Shown here one piece after another: positions 14,440 to 22,586 of a DNA stretch of 32,861 bases. Positions within the stretch are counted from its first letter, which is position 1. Each line of letters begins with the position of its first letter. The stretch lies in the NCBI RefSeq assembly GCF_001432305.1, contig NZ_KQ483358.1:717057-749917 (forward strand). The letters are read 5' to 3'. Under the pieces are notes generated by a model. The model saw only the letters and a list, made by a program, of their open reading frames with translations. It was not told the origin of the DNA and made no database searches. A program made the position numbers and the translations under genes. Source of the stretch: Curvibacter sp. PAE-UM (GTDB lineage Bacteria > Pseudomonadota > Gammaproteobacteria > Burkholderiales > Burkholderiaceae_C).

Positions 14440-16455
14440 ATGGCAAATACCCGACAGATGGCCAACGCGATCCGCGCGCTGGCAATGGACGCAGTGCAAC
14501 AAGCCAACTCCGGACACCCGGGTGCGCCCATGGGCATGGCCGACATGGCCGTTGCGCTCTGGGGTGAACACCTCAAGCACAACCCGACCAACCCGCAATG
14601 GGCCGATCGCGACCGTTTCGTCCTGTCCAACGGCCATGCCTCCATGCTGTTGTACGCGTTGCTGCACCTGACGGGTTACGACCTGCCGTTAAAGGAGCTG
14701 AAGAACTTCCGCCAGCTCGGCAGCAAGACGGCCGGCCACCCAGAAGTGGGCCACACCCCCGGCGTGGAAACCACCACCGGCCCGCTGGGCCAGGGCGTGA
14801 CCAATGCCGTGGGCATGGCGCTGGCCGAGAAGCTGCTGGCCCGGGAATTCAACCGCGACGGCCACAGCATCGTCGACCACCACACCTACGTCTTCCTGGG
14901 CGATGGCTGCATGATGGAAGGCATCAGCCACGAGGCCGCGGCCCTGGCCGGTGCCTGGAAGCTGAACAAGCTGATCGCCCTGTACGACGACAACGGCATC
15001 TCCATCGACGGCCAGGTCACCCCCTGGTACGGTGACAACACCGCGCTGCGTTTCGTGGCCTATGGCTGGAACGTGATCGGCCCGATCAACGGGCATGACG
15101 TCGCCGCTGTTTCCGAAGCCATCGCGCGCGCCAAGCAGTCCGACAACCAGCCCACGCTGGTCATCTGCAAGACCGCCATCGGCCACGGTTCGCCCAACCG
15201 CGCCAACACCGCCAAGGCGCATGGCGAGCCGCTGGGTGGCGAAGAGATCAAGCTCACGCGCGAGGCCCTGGGCTGGGCGCACGAGCCCTTCGTCATTCCG
15301 CAGGATGTGGCGGACGACTGGAATGCCACGAACCGCGGCATTGCCGCACAGGAAGCCTGGGAGCGGAAGTTCGCCGCCTACCGCGCCACGCACCCGGCCC
15401 TGGCGGCCGAGTTCGAGCGCCGCATGAAAGGCGAGCTGCCGAAGAACTTTGCCCAGGTGGCCGTGGACGCCGCCGTGGCGGCGCACACCAAGGCCGAGAC
15501 CGTGGCCAGCCGCAAGGCCAGCCAGATCGCGCTGGAGGCCTTCACGGCCGCCCTGCCCGAACTGCTGGGCGGCTCGGCCGACCTGACCGGCTCCAACCTC
15601 ACCAACACCAGCTCCACGCCCAATCTGCGCTTCGACGCCGATGGCAACGGCAACGGCGGGCGCCACATCAACTACGGCGTGCGCGAATTTGGCATGGCCG
15701 CCATCATGAACGGCATCGGCCTGCACGGTGGCTACATCCCCTACGGCGGCACCTTCCTGACCTTCAGCGACTACTCTCGCAACGCCATCCGCATGGCCGC
15801 GCTGATGAAACAACGCGTGGTGCATGTGTTCACGCACGACTCCATCGGCCTGGGCGAGGACGGCCCCACCCACCAGTCGGTGGAACATGCGGCCTCCCTG
15901 CGTCTGATCCCGAACCTGGACGTCTGGCGTCCCGCCGACACGGCCGAGACCGCCGTGGCCTGGGCCGTTGCGCTGCAAAACAAGAGCAAGCCCACCGCCC
16001 TGCTGCTTTCGCGCCAGAACCTGCCCTACGCGCCCAAGAAAGACCTGGGTGACATCAGCCGCGGTGCCTACGTGCTGTCTGAGCCGGCCGACCTGGGCCT
16101 GAAGCAGAAGGCTCGTGCCGTCATCATCGCCACCGGCTCCGAAGTGCAGCTCGCGCTCAAGGCACAGGAATTGCTGGCCGCGAAGAAGATCGCCGTGCGT
16201 GTGGTCTCCATGCCCAGTACCACCACCTTCGACCAGCAGAAACCCGCCTACAAGCAGGCCGTGCTGCCGGCAGGCCTGCCGCGCGTGGCCGTGGAGATGG
16301 GGGTGAGCGACGGCTGGTGGAAATACGGCTGCGCCGCCGTGGTGGGCCTCGACACCTATGGCGAGTCGGCCCCGGCCCCGGTGCTGTTCAAGCATTTCGG
16401 CTTCACGCCCGAGAACGTGGCCGACACGGTGCAGGCCGTGCTGGCCCGGAACTGA
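14440..16455 (+). CDS. tkt: Transketolase
   Basis: A 671-residue thiamine-diphosphate enzyme that moves two-carbon units between sugar phosphates in the pentose phosphate and, where present, Calvin pathways. The N-terminal part has [20 protein letters not shown], the ThDP/metal motif [18 protein letters not shown] and NNGISIDG-like DDNGISIDG. The middle domain shows the transketolase signature around [10 protein letters not shown] and [14 protein letters not shown], and the C-terminal domain follows from [13 protein letters not shown] 14440 begins the conserved [20 protein letters not shown]; a GGAG lies about 10 nt upstream. The gap gene starts 37 nt downstream in the same direction, so the two sugar-phosphate genes are probably cotranscribed. 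Divergent from the murU-like gene. Confidence 0.97.
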
Positions 16456-16471
16456 TTTCCTTGTGTTTTAA

Positions 16472-17491
<1,020 letters not shown>

Positions 17492-17560: not shown

Positions 17561-20509
17561 TTAGCTCAGATGCTTGCCGATGAGGCCTGCAATCTCGAAC
17601 ATCGTCACCTTGTCCTTGCCGAAGACGGGCTTGAGCTTGGCATCGGCGTTGATGCTGCGCTTGTCCTTGGGGTCTTGCAGGCCCTGGGCCTTGATGTAAT
17701 CCCAGAGTTTCTTGACGACCTCGGTGCGTGCCACCGCTGTGCTGCCGATCACGGCGGCCAGTTCGGCGCTGGGGGTCAGGCCGGCAGCCGTCTTGCGTGG
17801 CGCTTTGGCAGCAGTGGTCTTGGCTGCGGCTTTCTTGGCCGGTGCCTTTTTGGTTGCCACCTTTTTGGCCGCCGTTTTCTTGGCGGCTGGCCCCGTGGTC
17901 TTGGCGGCCGCGCCAGCGGCGGATTTGGCCGCGGTCTTGCGTGGCGGGAACTTGGACGGGGCAAACTCGAAAGCGACCTTGTTGGCCTCGGCGCTCCAGG
18001 CCAGGAAGGCCTTGAAGGGGCGACGCGTGCGCATGGAGACGAACTTGTCCAGCAGGTCGGTCTTGCCGGTGCTCAGCAGCTTGGCCATCTGCTCGCGCTC
18101 GATGGGCTGCTGCAGGATGATCTGGCCGCTCTTGAAGTCGCAGCTCGGCGTGGGCTGGGCCAGGGTGGGCACCGTTCTTTCGCAGACGTAGTTCTTGCCA
18201 TGCTCGTAGACCGCGCCGCCGCACTTGGGGCAGGCACCCAGCGACTCCTTGGCGGAGAAGTCCACCAGCTCGCCGGTCTCCTCCGCCTTGTCGTCGCCGA
18301 AGTCGAATTCGAGCTTGTAGTTCTTGGTTTCCTCGTCGAACTTGATGACCATCTCGGCCGTGAAGGGCCAGCCGGCCTTGGAGCGGAAGCCGTCCAGCGG
18401 GCCGATGCGTTTGTCGCGCAGGAATTGCTCCACCTCCGCCACCTCGAAGGTGCGACCGGCGGGGGTTTTGCCGAAGGAGAAGCCGCAGCCCTCGCCGTCG
18501 CCCTTCTTGCCGGTGCAGGTGTAGCGCCGGTAGTTTTCCTTGACCACACCGCCGCAGTTCGGGCAAGGCGTGCTGAGTGTGGCGTAGTCACCCGGCACGG
18601 TGTCGCGGTCATATTCCTTGGCCTTCTTGACGATGTGCTCGGTCATGGCGGCGATCTCGCGCATGAACTCTTCGCGCGAGAGGCGGCCGTGTTCCATCTC
18701 GGAGAGTTTGTATTCCCATTCGCCGGTCAGCTCGGGCCTCGAGAGTTCCTCCACGCCCAGGCCGCGCAGCAGGGTCATGAGCTGGAAGGCCTTGGCGGTG
18801 GGAATGAGCTCGCGGCCTTCGCGCAGCATGTATTTTTCCGTTAGCAGCCCTTCGATGGTGGCCGCGCGCGTGGCCGGTGTGCCCAGGCCCTTCTCGTGCA
18901 TGGCTTCGCGCAGCTCGTCGTCCTCGATCAGCTTGCCGGCACCCTCCATGGCCGAGAGCAGCGTGGCTTCCGAATATCGTGCCGGGGGCCGGGTCTTGAG
19001 ACCCTTGGGGTCGACGCTGTGGGTCTTGACCTTCTCGCCGGCCTGCACCGGCACCAGGGTCTTGCTGCTGCCTTCGCCCGGCGCGAGCTCGTCTTCGGCC
19101 TCCTTGCCGTAGATGGCCAGCCAGCCCGGCTTGACCAGCACCTTGCCTTCGCTCTTGAAGTTGTGGCCGGCGGCTGTGGTGATGCGGGTGGTGACCTGGT
19201 ACTCGGCACTGGGGAAAAAGATCGCCATGAAACGGCGCGCCACCAGGTCGTACAGCTTCTGCTCGGCGTCCGAGAGGCCGCTGGGCGCCTGCAGCGTGGG
19301 GATGATGGCAAAGTGGTCGCTGACCTTGGCGTTGTCGAAGATGCGCTTGTTGGGTTTGACGTAGCCGCCCTTGAGCGCGGTGGCGGCGTGTGGCGCCAGG
19401 TGTTTCATGCCGGAGTCGGCCAGCATGCCAAAGGTCTCCTTGGCCACGGCCAGGTAGTCCTCGGGCAGATGGCGTGAATCGGTCCGCGGGTAGGTCAGGG
19501 CCTTGTGGCGCTCGTAGAGGCTTTGCGCAATCGACAGCGTGGTCTTGGCGGAAAAGCCGAATTTGCCGTTGGCTTCGCGCTGCAGGCTGGTCAGGTCGAA
19601 CAACATGGGCGAAGCCTGGGTGCTGGGCTTGCTTTCCTCGATCACGGTGGCGGTCTGGCCGCGCACGGCATCGGCAATAGCCGTGGCCTCTTTCTCGTTC
19701 CAGACGCGGTCGGCGCGTTTCTCGGCGTCGTCCTCGGTTTTTTTCCACTTCGGGTCGAACCACTTGCCCGCGTAGTCGCCGGCCTGGGCGCCGAAGCTGG
19801 CGTGCACCTCCCAGTAGTTGCGGCTGATGAACTTGCGGATCTGTTCCTCGCGCTCCACCACCACGGCCAGGGTGGGCGTCTGCACGCGGCCCACGGTGGT
19901 GAGGAAGAAACCGCCATCGCGCGAGTTGAAGGCGGTCATGGCACGGGTGCCGTTGATGCCGACCAGCCAGTCGGCCTCGGAGCGACTGCGCGCCGCATCG
20001 GCCAGGGGCAGCATCTGCTTGTCGCTGCGCAGCTTGTCGAAGCCGTCGCGGATGGCCTGGGGTGTCATGCTCTGCAGCCACAGGCGCGAAACCGGCTTGC
20101 CCAGGGGCTTGGCGCCGCCGGCGTATTGCTCGATCAGGCGGAAGATCAGCTCGCCCTCGCGGCCCGCGTCACAGGCGTTGATCAGCTGGCCTACGTCCTT
20201 GCGCTTGGCCAGCTTGACCACGGCGTTCAGGCGGGTCTTGGTCTTGTCGACCGGCTTGAGGTCGAAATGCGGCGGGATCACCGGCAGGTGGGCAAAGCTC
20301 CACTTGCCGCGTTTCACGTCGTACTGCTCGGGCGCCTGGATTTCCACCAGGTGGCCGACGGCACTCGTGACGACGTAGTTGTCGCTCTCGAAGTGCTCAT
20401 CGTGCTTCTCGAACTTGCCGGCAGTGGGCGTGAGGGCGCGCACGATGTCCTGGGCGACCGAAGGCTTTTCAGCAATGATCAGGGTTTTGCCTAAAACTGC
20501 GTTTTTCAT
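17561..20509 (-). CDS. topB: DNA topoisomerase III with Lys/Ala-rich linker and C-terminal SWIB domain
   Basis: A 982-residue type IA topoisomerase, much longer than the roughly 650 residues of E. coli TopB. The Toprim domain begins TLIIAEKPSVAQDIVRAL with the acidic motif in NACDAGREGELIF. The active-site tyrosine lies in LTYPRTDSRHLP. Two C-terminal zinc-ribbon-like segments follow, starting CPNCGGVVKENYRRY and CPKCGGAVYEHGKNYVC. Residues 854-910 are a Lys/Ala/Pro-rich, histone-H1-like linker (repeats such as AAKK, APAKK). Residues 911-982 are a SWIB/MDM2-type domain, with RTEVVKKLWDYIKAQGLQDP and INADAKLKPVFGKDKVTMFE. Type IA enzymes unlink single strands and precatenanes at forks. ATG 20509 starts the conserved region; a longer frame runs through a GC repeat and is rejected. 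Divergent from the SET gene. Confidence 0.95.
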   Translation of the reverse strand: MKNAVLGKTLIIAEKPSVAQDIVRALTPTAGKFEKHDEHFESDNYVVTSAVGHLVEIQAPEQYDVKRGKWSFAHLPVIPPHFDLKPVDKTKTRLNAVVKLAKRKDVGQLINACDAGREGELIFRLIEQYAGGAKPLGKPVSRLWLQSMTPQAIRDGFDKLRSDKQMLPLADAARSRSEADWLVGINGTRAMTAFNSRDGGFFLTTVGRVQTPTLAVVVEREEQIRKFISRNYWEVHASFGAQAGDYAGKWFDPKWKKTEDDAEKRADRVWNEKEATAIADAVRGQTATVIEESKPSTQASPMLFDLTSLQREANGKFGFSAKTTLSIAQSLYERHKALTYPRTDSRHLPEDYLAVAKETFGMLADSGMKHLAPHAATALKGGYVKPNKRIFDNAKVSDHFAIIPTLQAPSGLSDAEQKLYDLVARRFMAIFFPSAEYQVTTRITTAAGHNFKSEGKVLVKPGWLAIYGKEAEDELAPGEGSSKTLVPVQAGEKVKTHSVDPKGLKTRPPARYSEATLLSAMEGAGKLIEDDELREAMHEKGLGTPATRAATIEGLLTEKYMLREGRELIPTAKAFQLMTLLRGLGVEELSRPELTGEWEYKLSEMEHGRLSREEFMREIAAMTEHIVKKAKEYDRDTVPGDYATLSTPCPNCGGVVKENYRRYTCTGKKGDGEGCGFSFGKTPAGRTFEVAEVEQFLRDKRIGPLDGFRSKAGWPFTAEMVIKFDEETKNYKLEFDFGDDKAEETGELVDFSAKESLGACPKCGGAVYEHGKNYVCERTVPTLAQPTPSCDFKSGQIILQQPIEREQMAKLLSTGKTDLLDKFVSMRTRRPFKAFLAWSAEANKVAFEFAPSKFPPRKTAAKSAAGAAAKTTGPAAKKTAAKKVATKKAPAKKAAAKTTAAKAPRKTAAGLTPSAELAAVIGSTAVARTEVVKKLWDYIKAQGLQDPKDKRSINADAKLKPVFGKDKVTMFEIAGLIGKHLS

Positions 20510-20526
20510 CTGACTACAATCCAGTT

Positions 20527-20580
20527 TCTCGCGCGCGCATACGCGCACGCATACACGGGCGCGCCCACGCGCGCCCATAC
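20527..20580. repeat. Alternating purine-pyrimidine GC repeat between topB and the SET gene
   Basis: About 54 nt consist almost wholly of CG, CA and TA steps, in imperfect units each ending CATAC (for example GCGCGCATAC and GCACGCATAC). Such runs can adopt left-handed Z-DNA under negative supercoiling. The tract lies in the shared upstream region of two divergent genes, one of which encodes a topoisomerase. Confidence 0.65.
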
Positions 20581-20607
20581 GAGTTCACCTTACCAAATTT
20601 TTCAGCA

Positions 20608-21141
20608 GTGTCCAAGAATCCCGTTTCCGAACCCGGCCGCCGTATCCAGACCCGTCGCTCCGGCGTCCATGGCAAGGGGGTCTTTGCTGTCCAGGACATT
20701 CCCAGGGGGGAAACCCTCATCGAGTACGTGGGCGAGATCATCAACTGGGAGGAAGCGCTGCGCCGCCACCCCCACGACCCCAAGGATCCCAACCACACCT
20801 TCTATTTTCACGTCGATGAAGACCATGTGATCGACGCCAAGGTGGGCGGCAACTCCTCGCGCTGGATCAACCATTCCTGCGAACCCAACTGCGAGGCTGA
20901 CGAGGAAGAGGGCCGCGTCTTCATCAAGTCGCTGCGCAAGATCAAGGCCGGTGAGGAGCTCAACTACGACTACGGCCTCATCATCGACGAGCCCTATACC
21001 AAGAAGCTCAAGGCGGAATACCCTTGCTGGTGCGGCAGCAAGCTCTGTCGCGGCACGCTGCTGGCACCGAAGGACGACGACAAGCCCAAGAAATCCAAGA
21101 AGTCCAAGAAGAAAAACAAGTCCAAGGGCGGCAAGCGCTGA
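20608..21141 (+). CDS. SET-domain protein-lysine methyltransferase
   Basis: A 177-residue protein consisting of a SET domain and a basic tail. SET motifs are SGVHGKGVFAVQDIPRGE near the start, EYVGEII, the SAM-binding and catalytic pseudoknot RWINHSCEPNC (85-95) and GEELNYDYG (115-123) with the catalytic tyrosine. A post-SET-like zinc motif follows (CWCGSKLC; Cys140, 142, 147), probably shared with Cys95. The last 22 residues are almost all Lys, Ser, Asp and Gly. SET enzymes transfer methyl groups from S-adenosylmethionine to lysine side chains. In bacteria the substrates are largely unknown; Chlamydia NUE methylates histone-like proteins. The start is GTG 20608, with no good Shine-Dalgarno. 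It is divergent from topB and 11 nt before birA, with which it is probably cotranscribed. Confidence 0.9.
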   Translation: MSKNPVSEPGRRIQTRRSGVHGKGVFAVQDIPRGETLIEYVGEIINWEEALRRHPHDPKDPNHTFYFHVDEDHVIDAKVGGNSSRWINHSCEPNCEADEEEGRVFIKSLRKIKAGEELNYDYGLIIDEPYTKKLKAEYPCWCGSKLCRGTLLAPKDDDKPKKSKKSKKKNKSKGGKR

Positions 21142-21152
21142 AGGAGTTCGCC

Positions 21153-21911
21153 ATGTTGCGCTGGCCGGCCGAAGCGATCTGGGAAGCGGTGGTGCCCACC
21201 CTGCCCGGTTTCACGGTCGAAGTGCTGCCGCAGCTGGACTCCACCAACACCGAGCTGATGCGCCGTGCCCGTGCGGGCCGGCTGGAGCCGGTGCTGCTGG
21301 TGGCCGAAGCCCAGACCGCCGGCCGCGGCCGCCTGGGGCGCGCCTGGAGCAGCGGCACCCAGCCCGGGGACGTGCTGACCTTCTCCCTGGGCCTGCCCCT
21401 GCAGATGGCCGACTGGTCTGGCCTGTCGCTGGCCGTGGGCCTGAGCGTGGTGCAGAGCCTGCACCCCGACCTGCGGCTCAAGTGGCCCAACGATGTCTGG
21501 CTGGCCGACCGCAAGCTGGCCGGCATCCTGATCGAGACCACCCAGATTGGCGCTGCACGCTACGCGGTCATCGGCGTGGGTATCAACATCAGGCCGCGGG
21601 ACGCGACCGGGCTGAGCACACCGCCGGCCTGGTTGCAGGAGCTGGTGCCCGGCACCGACGCGCCACAGGCCCTGTTGCAGGTGGCCGCGCCCCTGGTTCA
21701 GGCCGTGCAGCGCTTTGAGGCCCAGGGCTGGGGACCCTTCCATCCCGCCTACGCGGCACGGGATGCACTGGCTGGCCGCGAGGTGACCTTGAGCGACGGC
21801 AGCAGCGGCCAGGCCCGGGGCGTGGATGGCAGCGGTGCGCTGCTCGTGCATACTGCTGCCGGGCTGAAGAAAATCTCCAGCGCTGAAGTCAGCGTCCGCC
21901 CCTCGAACTGA
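21153..21911 (+). CDS. birA: Biotin--[acetyl-CoA-carboxylase] ligase, catalytic form without HTH
   Basis: A 252-residue biotin protein ligase that makes biotinyl-AMP and attaches biotin to the carrier subunit of acetyl-CoA carboxylase. The nucleotide/biotin motif is AQTAGRGRLGRAWSS, followed by LKWPNDVWLADRKLAGIL and the GVGINIR strand. The C-terminal small domain ends with GALLVHTAAGLKKISSAEVS. It is about 70 residues shorter than E. coli BirA and lacks the N-terminal DNA-binding domain, so it should not repress biotin genes. ATG 21153 has an excellent AAGGAG 7 nt upstream, and the longer open frame upstream lies within the SET gene. In relatives a type III pantothenate kinase often follows birA; here a SPOR-like gene follows directly. 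Confidence 0.94.
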   Translation: MLRWPAEAIWEAVVPTLPGFTVEVLPQLDSTNTELMRRARAGRLEPVLLVAEAQTAGRGRLGRAWSSGTQPGDVLTFSLGLPLQMADWSGLSLAVGLSVVQSLHPDLRLKWPNDVWLADRKLAGILIETTQIGAARYAVIGVGINIRPRDATGLSTPPAWLQELVPGTDAPQALLQVAAPLVQAVQRFEAQGWGPFHPAYAARDALAGREVTLSDGSSGQARGVDGSGALLVHTAAGLKKISSAEVSVRPSN

Positions 21912-21926
21912 AGACGAACCCTTCCC

Positions 21927-22586
21927 ATGCTGCGTCTCCTTGTCCTGCTGCTGGTCCTGTTGAATGCGGGCTATTACGCCTGGTCGCAGGGCATGCTGCG
22001 CAGCTACGGCTGGGCCCCGGCCGAGCAGAGCGAGCCGCAGCGTCTGACGCAGCAGATCCGTCCGGAGGCCATCCGCATCCTGCCGGCCGACGAGGGGCGC
22101 CGCGCCGAACAGGTCGCGCTGACGCCGCCCAAACCCCCCGAGTGCCTGCAGGCCGGCCTGTTTGACGAGGCCCAGACCGAGACCGTGCGCAAGGCCCTGG
22201 AAACCAGCTTGCCGGGCGGTGCCTGGTCGCTGGAGCTGATGGTGGAGCCGGCGCGCTGGATCGTCTACATGGGCAAATTCCCCAACGCCGCTGCGCAGGA
22301 GAAAAAGAAGGTCGAACTCGAGAAGATGAAGCTCAGATTGCAGCCGCTGGACAACCCGGAATTGCAACTGGGCCTGTCCCTCGGGCGTTTCGAGACCCAG
22401 GCACAGGCTCAGACCGAGTTGAACGCTCTGCAGCGCCGCGGTGTGCGCACGGCGCGCGTGGTGCAGGAACGGCCGGAGATCCGGCAAAGCCAGCTGCGGA
22501 TCCCGGCGGCCGACGAGGCCCTGCGGCCCAAGCTGGAAGAGATCAAGCCGGCGCTGGGCGACAAGACGCTGCGCAGCTGCCGCTGA
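21927..22586 (+). CDS. SPOR-domain-like membrane-anchored protein
   Basis: A 219-residue protein with an N-terminal membrane anchor (LRLLVLLLVLLNAGYYAW, about residues 2-20) and a periplasmic part. A Pro/Arg-rich linker precedes a conserved cysteine in PPECLQAGLF. The region from about residue 95 to 180 resembles a SPOR domain, with WIVYMGKFPNAAAQEKKKVE and LSLGRFETQAQAQTELNAL followed by GVRTARVV. SPOR domains bind denuded septal peptidoglycan. A role in cell division is therefore possible but not shown. It starts 15 nt after birA, with no strong Shine-Dalgarno, and is probably part of the SET-birA transcript. The C-terminal 35 residues are charged and end RSCR. Confidence 0.7.
   Translation: MLRLLVLLLVLLNAGYYAWSQGMLRSYGWAPAEQSEPQRLTQQIRPEAIRILPADEGRRAEQVALTPPKPPECLQAGLFDEAQTETVRKALETSLPGGAWSLELMVEPARWIVYMGKFPNAAAQEKKKVELEKMKLRLQPLDNPELQLGLSLGRFETQAQAQTELNALQRRGVRTARVVQERPEIRQSQLRIPAADEALRPKLEEIKPALGDKTLRSCR

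What the first reader, a model, noticed from the sequence alone, without database searches (positions are those of the whole stretch)
17561..21141. Divergent topoisomerase III-SWIB fusion and SET methyltransferase: a candidate chromatin-like module
Seen: topB carries a histone-H1-like Lys/Ala-rich linker and a SWIB domain, and the adjacent divergent gene encodes a SET lysine methyltransferase with intact catalytic motifs. Known: SWIB and SET are chromatin-associated domains in eukaryotes, and Chlamydia has both a SWIB-tailed topoisomerase and the SET enzyme NUE, which acts on histone-like proteins. Inference: the SET enzyme may methylate the lysine-rich linker of the neighbouring TopB, or a nucleoid protein, and so tune topoisomerase action on DNA. 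I know of no description of such a pair in betaproteobacteria, but cannot check this.
Basis: partly seen in the sequence, partly recalled or inferred. Interest (0 to 1): 0.75.

Follow-up and report, generated by a model that had tools for sequence, protein, structure and literature searches.

The report
Conserved SET methyltransferase beside topoisomerase III
A histone-methylase-like enzyme sits back to back with a DNA topoisomerase in nearly all sampled members of one bacterial family, which hints at a chromatin-like housekeeping function in bacteria, although the enzyme's target is still unknown.

Summary
TopB (982 aa, window 17561-20509, minus) ends in a Lys/Ala-rich linker and a SWIB domain. 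A GTG-started SET gene (20608-21141, plus) is divergent, 98 bp away, with catalytic and zinc residues intact.

The adjacency is not chance. 135 of 140 loci of the window's family have SET divergent from topB, and so do 76 of 80 named relatives. TopB's other neighbour, gapA, is kept in 11 of 135. SET is nearly as conserved as TopB. It is a housekeeping block: topB | SET-birA.

The "SWIB-SET pair" reading needs correction. SET sits beside SWIB-less TopB too (60 of 129). The SWIB fusion looks like one later event. Lys-rich TopB tails occur without SET, and are absent in one genus where SET adjoins topB. TopB's linker is therefore not singled out as substrate.

SET and SWIB genes co-occur across the order beyond genome size, and some SET proteins carry their own H1-like tails. 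Best reading: a cytosolic lysine methyltransferase of nucleoid proteins. The substrate is unproven. A SET/SWIB/topoisomerase chromatin set was already proposed for Chlamydiae (PMC6426960).

The parts
17561..20509 (-). topB, DNA topoisomerase III of the SWIB-tailed type, 982 aa
   Evidence: NF011313 1970 bits against a cut-off of 1088
17777..17944 (-). Lys/Ala/Pro-rich linker of TopB (about residues 856-911), with PPRKT and KAPRKT motifs near its two ends
17567..17776 (-). SWIB/MDM2 domain (residues 912-981)
   Evidence: PF02201 95.8 bits; TopB SWIB domains fit one clade apart from standalone SWIB
20510..20607 (.). 98-bp divergent intergenic region between topB and SET; no sigma-70-like site found by consensus scan
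20608..21141 (+). SET-domain lysine methyltransferase gene (177 aa, GTG start)
   Evidence: (MLL1/KMT2A E 3e-26)
20671..20976 (+). SET domain, residues 22-123
21025..21054 (+). post-SET zinc motif CWCGSKLCRG, residues 140-149
21073..21138 (+). Lys-rich C-terminal tail of SET, variable across the family
21153..21911 (+). biotin-protein ligase (birA), next gene of the conserved block
   Evidence: PF03099, PF02237; on SET's strand in 134 of 134 loci in which topB, SET and birA were all found
21927..22586 (+). following gene of the block; called SPOR-like by recall, no Pfam match
   Evidence: no family; found in 109 of 135 loci

Best explanation
The SET protein is an endogenous, cytosolic housekeeping lysine methyltransferase. 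It is kept in a divergent unit with topoisomerase III (topB | SET-birA) in nearly all sampled members of the window's family. It most likely methylates lysines in the disordered, histone-H1-like tails of nucleoid proteins: chiefly the standalone tail-SWIB protein and other H1-like proteins, TopB's own tail where suitable, and possibly itself. This would tune DNA binding and thereby topology. Shown: intact sequence motifs, conserved pairing, housekeeping-level constraint, SET-SWIB co-occurrence, H1-like tails on SWIB and TopB proteins and on some SET proteins. Inferred: catalytic activity, cytosolic or nucleoid location, substrate, effect on topology.
For: SET beside and divergent from topB in 135 of 140 family loci, median 162 bp, and in 76 of 80 named loci, the other 4 within 214 bp of a contig end. 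SET present in 141 of 150 family genomes. Median identity to the window protein: SET 72% (n 140), TopB 75% (n 135), BirA 54% (n 137); SET above BirA in 134 of 134 loci. Catalytic and zinc residues invariant or nearly so. One genome per family, 50 families: SET and SWIB together in 10, SET alone 2, SWIB alone 6, neither 32; p 4e-5; 4e-4 after genome size; PhaC and HC2 0.08 each after size; p 7e-4 without the two weakest SET matches and 1e-4 without the window's family. The standalone SWIB protein has an H1-like (AKKAPAKK)n tail. Some SET proteins of other families carry 40-82 aa H1-like N-terminal tails, 32-39% Lys. Outside the family, SET lies within 10 kb of topB in 9 of 37 genomes examined, in four families, never divergent. 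Precedents: cpnSET methylates Hc1, Go1-SET methylates MC1-alpha (PMC3980110, passages).
Against: No substrate is shown. The adjacency could be passive: birA is kept beside SET just as faithfully, and SET distances correlate with BirA at least as well as with TopB (partial r 0.37 against 0.31). Seven of nine SET-less genomes are at least 90% complete, so the enzyme is dispensable. Genome size and lifestyle confound the co-occurrence: before correction SET goes with the unrelated PhaC too (p 0.02), and SWIB with PhaC (p 0.002). Relatedness between families is not corrected for. HC2-type H1 proteins are not significantly associated with SET (p 0.11 raw, 0.075 after size). The SET C-terminal tail is short in most family members (median 11 aa, 138 of 140 measured), and in 2 of 7 f13 and 2 of 4 f47 loci the N-terminal tail is short.
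Confidence: 0.5

Rival explanations
1. Gene order is only a conserved block with a shared divergent control region. SET methylates something unrelated to DNA, such as a ribosomal protein, a translation factor or a metabolic enzyme.
For: birA is kept in the block as well as topB is. No special SET-TopB distance correlation. SET is retained whether or not TopB has SWIB.
Against: The SET-SWIB co-occurrence across families after genome-size correction. H1-like tails on some SET proteins themselves. SET near topB in four other families with other orientations.
Confidence: 0.32
2. One reading: SET methylates the lysine-rich linker of its neighbour TopB and so tunes the topoisomerase.
For: Faithful pairing. 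Each of 129 SET-paired family TopBs measured (window included) has at least 4 tail lysines. In SWIB-tailed TopB the linker has a PRK motif in 58 of 70, shuffled mean 5.7. Two of six SET-less family TopBs with a complete tail have few lysines, 0 and 3.
Against: Lys-rich TopB ends in genomes without a detected SET; 2-3 lysines in genus g11 although SET is adjacent. Four of six SET-less family TopBs keep 8-12 tail lysines. Six SET and six SWIB changes on the TopB tree give no testable coupling: 3 independent pairs. Motif counts are inflated by common descent and by anchoring to folded domains.
Confidence: 0.13
3. It is a secreted effector that methylates host histones, like the reported BtSET of Burkholderia and LegAS4 of Legionella.
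For: Reviews report a B. thailandensis SET protein as a type III effector and name a LegAS4-like one in Bordetella (PMC3980110, passages; PMC7819608, passages, for the Burkholderia protein). Clear similarity to eukaryotic KMT2/SETD enzymes.
Against: Found in 141 of 150 family genomes; the 80 named relatives are by title or recall mostly environmental genera. It sits in a housekeeping block and is nearly as conserved as TopB. LegAS4-type NCBIfam model far below cut-off, 44.6 against 550. Secretion itself was not tested.
Confidence: 0.05

Closest known systems
Chlamydial set: DNA topoisomerase I-SWIB (CT643/Wcw_1713), standalone SWIB (CT460/Wcw_0377), SET protein (CT737 NUE/Wcw_0084)
   Same: The same three parts; [quoted passage not shown]
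   Different: Here the enzyme is topoisomerase III (PRK14724), not topoisomerase I (PRK06319 model 188.8 bits against a cut-off of 868). The genes are a tight conserved pair, and SET also pairs with SWIB-less TopB. Whether the chlamydial genes are linked was not examined.
cpnSET of Chlamydia pneumoniae, which methylates histone-like Hc1 (Murata 2007, known here only through passages of PMC3980110)
   Same: A bacterial SET enzyme acting on an H1-like protein of its own cell is the mechanism proposed here.
   Different: Substrate and activity are unknown here; NUE did not methylate Hc1.
BtSET (B. thailandensis) and the LegAS4-like protein of Bordetella
   Same: SET proteins in the same bacterial order; possibly orthologues.
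   Different: Reported as injected effectors. Orthology with the topB-linked gene was not tested; I did not fetch them by name.
Eukaryotic KMT2/MLL SET plus post-SET domains
   Same: Catalytic and post-SET zinc motifs present; best PDB hits (E 3e-26).
   Different: Small single-domain bacterial protein without MLL's other domains; specificity unknown.

Membership tests
DNA topoisomerase III, SWIB-tailed (NCBIfam NF011313/PRK14724) | Whole-protein score over the curated cut-off | tested here: met
   1970.4 against 1088 bits, residues 8-982
SWIB/MDM2 domain (PF02201) | Score over the gathering cut-off | tested here: met
   95.8 against 25 bits
SET protein lysine methyltransferases (PF00856) | SET domain over cut-off; NH.C.PNC, catalytic Tyr, G.G, post-SET CxC...C (motifs recalled) | tested here: met
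   90.1 against 22.4 bits; residues invariant or nearly so in 141 sequences
SET protein lysine methyltransferases (PF00856) | Lysine methyltransferase activity | not testable with these tools
   needs enzyme assay or proteomics
Chlamydial topoisomerase I/SWIB (NF004966/PRK06319) | Score over the curated cut-off | tested here: not met
   188.8 against 868 bits
LegAS4/AnkI-type injected effector (NF043024) | Score over the curated cut-off | tested here: not met
   44.6 against 550 bits; only residues 20-123, the SET domain, match
Injected SET effectors in general (NUE, BtSET) | Secretion into host cells | not testable with these tools
   no secretion test made
Chromatin-like SET/SWIB/topoisomerase module | Gene linkage or co-occurrence beyond chance | tested here: met
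   135 of 140 loci; SET x SWIB p 4e-5 raw, 4e-4 after genome size, n = 50 families
Chromatin-like SET/SWIB/topoisomerase module | SET partner specifically tied to the SWIB-tailed topoisomerase | tested here: not met
   60 of 129 SET-paired TopBs lack SWIB

The most novel reading that the evidence does not exclude
Bacteria of the window's family carry an endogenous chromatin-modification circuit. A SET enzyme, co-regulated with topoisomerase III from a shared divergent region, methylates histone-H1-like tails on SWIB nucleoid proteins and on TopB. Possible sites are the PPRKT and KAPRKT motifs that flank the TopB linker. The SET proteins called effectors in relatives could then be recruited or misread versions of this housekeeping enzyme.
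Probability: 0.15. Interest if true: 0.85.

Novelty: new variant of a known kind. Interest (0 to 1): 0.5.

Why it matters
In the reviews seen here (passages), bacterial SET enzymes are discussed mostly as injected effectors. A SET gene conserved almost like a topoisomerase, found in 132 of 141 sampled genera of one family and in a fixed pair with topB, makes the question 'do bacteria methylate their own chromatin-like proteins?' directly testable in harmless strains. It also cautions against reading related genes in pathogens as effectors by default.

Tried and rejected
TopB linker as the co-evolved substrate: not supported, because Lys-rich ends occur without detected SET and are missing in g11 with SET.

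Coupled loss of SET and TopB-SWIB: it looked striking at first, because 8 of 9 SET-less family genomes gave a topB match (7 of 9 a near-full one) and only one of these reaches the SWIB end. On the TopB tree several of these lie in lineages whose SET-bearing neighbours also lack SWIB, and the independent-pair test had 3 pairs. Fisher on rows 69/1 against 60/5 gives p 0.11.

Special SET-TopB coevolution: partial correlations SET-TopB 0.31, SET-BirA 0.37, TopB-BirA 0.49 over 127 of 128 loci (the first attempt gave no partial value).

H1-like HC2 proteins as partners: raw p 0.11, after genome size 0.075.

SET C-terminal Lys tail as a conserved element: variable, median 11 aa, 138 of 140 measured.

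AlphaFold model of SET: mean pLDDT 40.5 from an alignment of 25 close relatives, not used, no fold search made.

Shared sigma-70 promoter: none found by consensus scan.
Full report
WHAT IS THERE. The window carries topB at 17561..20509 (minus, 982 aa) and a SET-domain gene at 20608..21141 (plus, 177 aa, GTG start), divergent with 98 bp between them. TopB is a complete topoisomerase III with zinc repeats, a Lys/Ala/Pro-rich linker and a SWIB domain. It scores 1970 bits on the NCBIfam model NF011313/PRK14724, cut-off 1088, so SWIB-tailed TopB is a recognised protein type. SET matches eukaryotic KMT2/MLL SET plus post-SET domains at E 3e-26. In 141 sequences (140 family loci and the window) N88, H89, Y122, C140 and C142 are in all 141, and C91, C95 and C147 in at least 97%. 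The genome has one SET gene and two SWIB genes. The second SWIB gene encodes a standalone protein with a long (AKKAPAKK)-type tail and a SWIB domain. The next genes are a biotin-protein ligase and a protein without a Pfam match that I call SPOR-like from recall.

IS THE PAIR CONSERVED? The window's family is coded f1 by the tool. In a sample of 250 genomes of the order, all 7 genomes of f1 have SET near a long SWIB-bearing open frame with divergent coordinates; the longest open frame around a SWIB match outside f1 is 354 aa, too short for a topB fusion. In 150 genomes of f1, 141 have SET and 148 have a SWIB domain. I fetched one stretch, around the best SET match, for 139 of the 140 other SET-bearing genomes (the position of G291 was not listed) plus one f1 genome of the first sample: 140 loci (checked). 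In 135 of 140, SET is adjacent to and divergent from topB (48-804 bp between matched parts, median 162). Of the other 5, two SETs lie within about 200 bp of a contig end, and three have no topB in the stretch, two of which still have birA. Of 80 named relatives, 76 show the pair and the other 4 lie within 214 bp of a contig end. The biotin-ligase gene lies on SET's strand in 134 of 134 loci in which it was found with topB and SET. By contrast gapA lies convergently within 2.5 kb of topB's other end in only 11 of 135, of which 112 have 2.5 kb of flank. So topB | SET-birA is a conserved block while topB's other side is shuffled. In four of the nine SET-less genomes birA lies directly divergent from topB (170-233 bp between matched parts), as if SET alone were missing; in a fifth, 1.5 kb of flank shows no birA, and the others lack the flank or topB.

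HOUSEKEEPING CONSTRAINT. Median identity to the window protein is 72% for SET (n 140), 75% for TopB (n 135), 54% for the biotin ligase (n 137) and 44% for the SPOR-like protein (n 90). SET is more conserved than the biotin ligase in 134 of 134 loci, and more than TopB in 51 of 134. This does not look like a fast-evolving effector. The NCBIfam effector model that the SET domain touches (AnkI/LegAS4) is far below its cut-off.

WHAT SET IS NOT TIED TO. In 135 family TopBs with a callable end (window included), 70 have SWIB. SET sits beside 69 of those and beside 60 SWIB-less TopBs; 6 are SET-less. On a FastTree tree of TopB, SWIB-bearing TopBs fall in one clade of 83 with scattered losses: 6 changes of SWIB, 6 of SET; several inner branches have low support. 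The 70 SWIB domains of TopB are compatible with one clade apart from 30 standalone ones (the AU test does not reject it, and the constrained tree scored better than the free one). The simplest account is one fusion of a tail-SWIB gene to topB, after SET was already in place. Losses of SET and SWIB cannot be shown to be coupled: 3 independent pairs. The Lys-rich tail also fails as a specific tie. All 129 SET-paired family TopBs measured have at least 4 tail lysines, but 4 of 6 SET-less ones keep 8-12. Outside f1, several TopBs of genomes without detected SET end Lys-rich (for example 14-20 lysines in L220, L221, L227, L234). In the four genomes of genus g11, where SET is convergently adjacent to topB, the same stretch has 2-3 lysines. 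A distance-correlation test shows no extra SET-TopB signal over SET-BirA.

WHAT POINTS TO THE NUCLEOID. (1) With the first genome drawn from each of 50 families, SET and SWIB occur together in 10, SET alone in 2, SWIB alone in 6, neither in 32 (p 4e-5; likelihood-ratio p 4e-4 with genome size in the model). Without the two weakest SET matches the table is 8, 2, 8, 32 (p 7e-4); without f1 p is 1e-4. The one control family, PhaC, chosen by me, gives 0.02 raw and 0.08 after size; HC2 gives 0.11 and 0.08; SWIB with PhaC gives 0.002 raw, so size or lifestyle does confound. In the full sample of 250 the table is 52, 14, 41, 143, without correction for relatedness. Families are themselves related, so this is suggestive, not conclusive. 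(2) SET proteins in five of seven f13 loci carry 60-82 aa H1-like N-terminal tails (32-39% Lys) and two of four f47 loci 40-50 aa ones, taking the first ATG of the frame as start; the window's SET has a Lys-rich C-terminal tail. (3) Outside f1, in 9 of 37 SET-bearing genomes examined (of 59) topB lies within 10 kb: families f4, f8 and f20 with both genes on one strand, f6 convergent. The 37 were not a random draw: six were taken because topB was already known to be near, and some stretches are short. (4) In SWIB-tailed TopB the linker has a PRK motif in 58 of 70 (shuffled mean 5.7), PPRK in 50 and K[AT]PRK in 35. From memory, KAPRK equals residues 14-18 of histone H3. Common descent and anchoring to folded domains inflate these counts, so this is a lead only.

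MECHANISM. My commitment: an endogenous lysine methyltransferase of H1-like tails on nucleoid proteins, paired with topB because both act on DNA topology and may share control in the 98-bp gap. Probability about 0.5. TopB's linker as the main substrate: 0.13. A target unrelated to DNA, with the block passively kept: 0.32. An injected effector: 0.05.

WHAT IS KNOWN. A 2019 paper on Waddlia (PMC6426960; passages and part of the reference list read) states that SWIB often co-occurs with SET, citing Aravind, Abhiman and Iyer 2011 (which I did not look up or read). [quoted passage not shown] Reviews (PMC3980110, PMC7819608, PMC10117894; passages read) report SET effectors, including one from B. thailandensis; PMC3980110 notes that cpnSET methylated Hc1 and NUE did not. 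Searches for SWIB with topoisomerase, Burkholderia and domain and for SWIB with topoisomerase III found no paper. A search for SET domain, SWIB, bacteria and topoisomerase found two, one on Waddlia and one on plant organelles. Other searches on bacterial SET proteins, SWIB and nucleoids were seen as listings only, apart from the papers named above; no listed title or abstract start describes this pair. These searches cover open-licence papers only, so an earlier description, above all in Aravind 2011, is possible. I therefore call it a new variant of a known kind.

Noticed in passing
L004, L005, L008, L009, L019 (family f13) and L273, L274 (f47): SET proteins with their own histone-H1-like N-terminal tails (40-82 aa, 32-39% Lys) fused directly to the SET domain.
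   Followed up: partly
window 17777-17944: Linker ends carry PPRKT and KAPRKT motifs, the latter resembling histone H3 around Lys14-Lys18 (recalled).
   Followed up: partly
L254-L257 (genus g11): SET and topB adjacent but convergent, with a Lys-poor, Arg-rich TopB end (RARRR or RTRRR): a natural counter-example to the linker hypothesis.
   Followed up: yes
G000:C1:167673-168122: HC2-type H1-like protein in the window's genome (54 bits, cut-off 40), a candidate substrate.
   Followed up: no
L061, L063, L064, L065: SET-less relatives keep birA divergent next to topB, as if SET alone had been lost from the block.
   Followed up: partly
window 14440-17491: tkt and gapA lie on topB's 3' side here, but on the SET-birA side of topB in many relatives, mostly SWIB-less ones: the block may have flipped as a unit.
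   Followed up: partly
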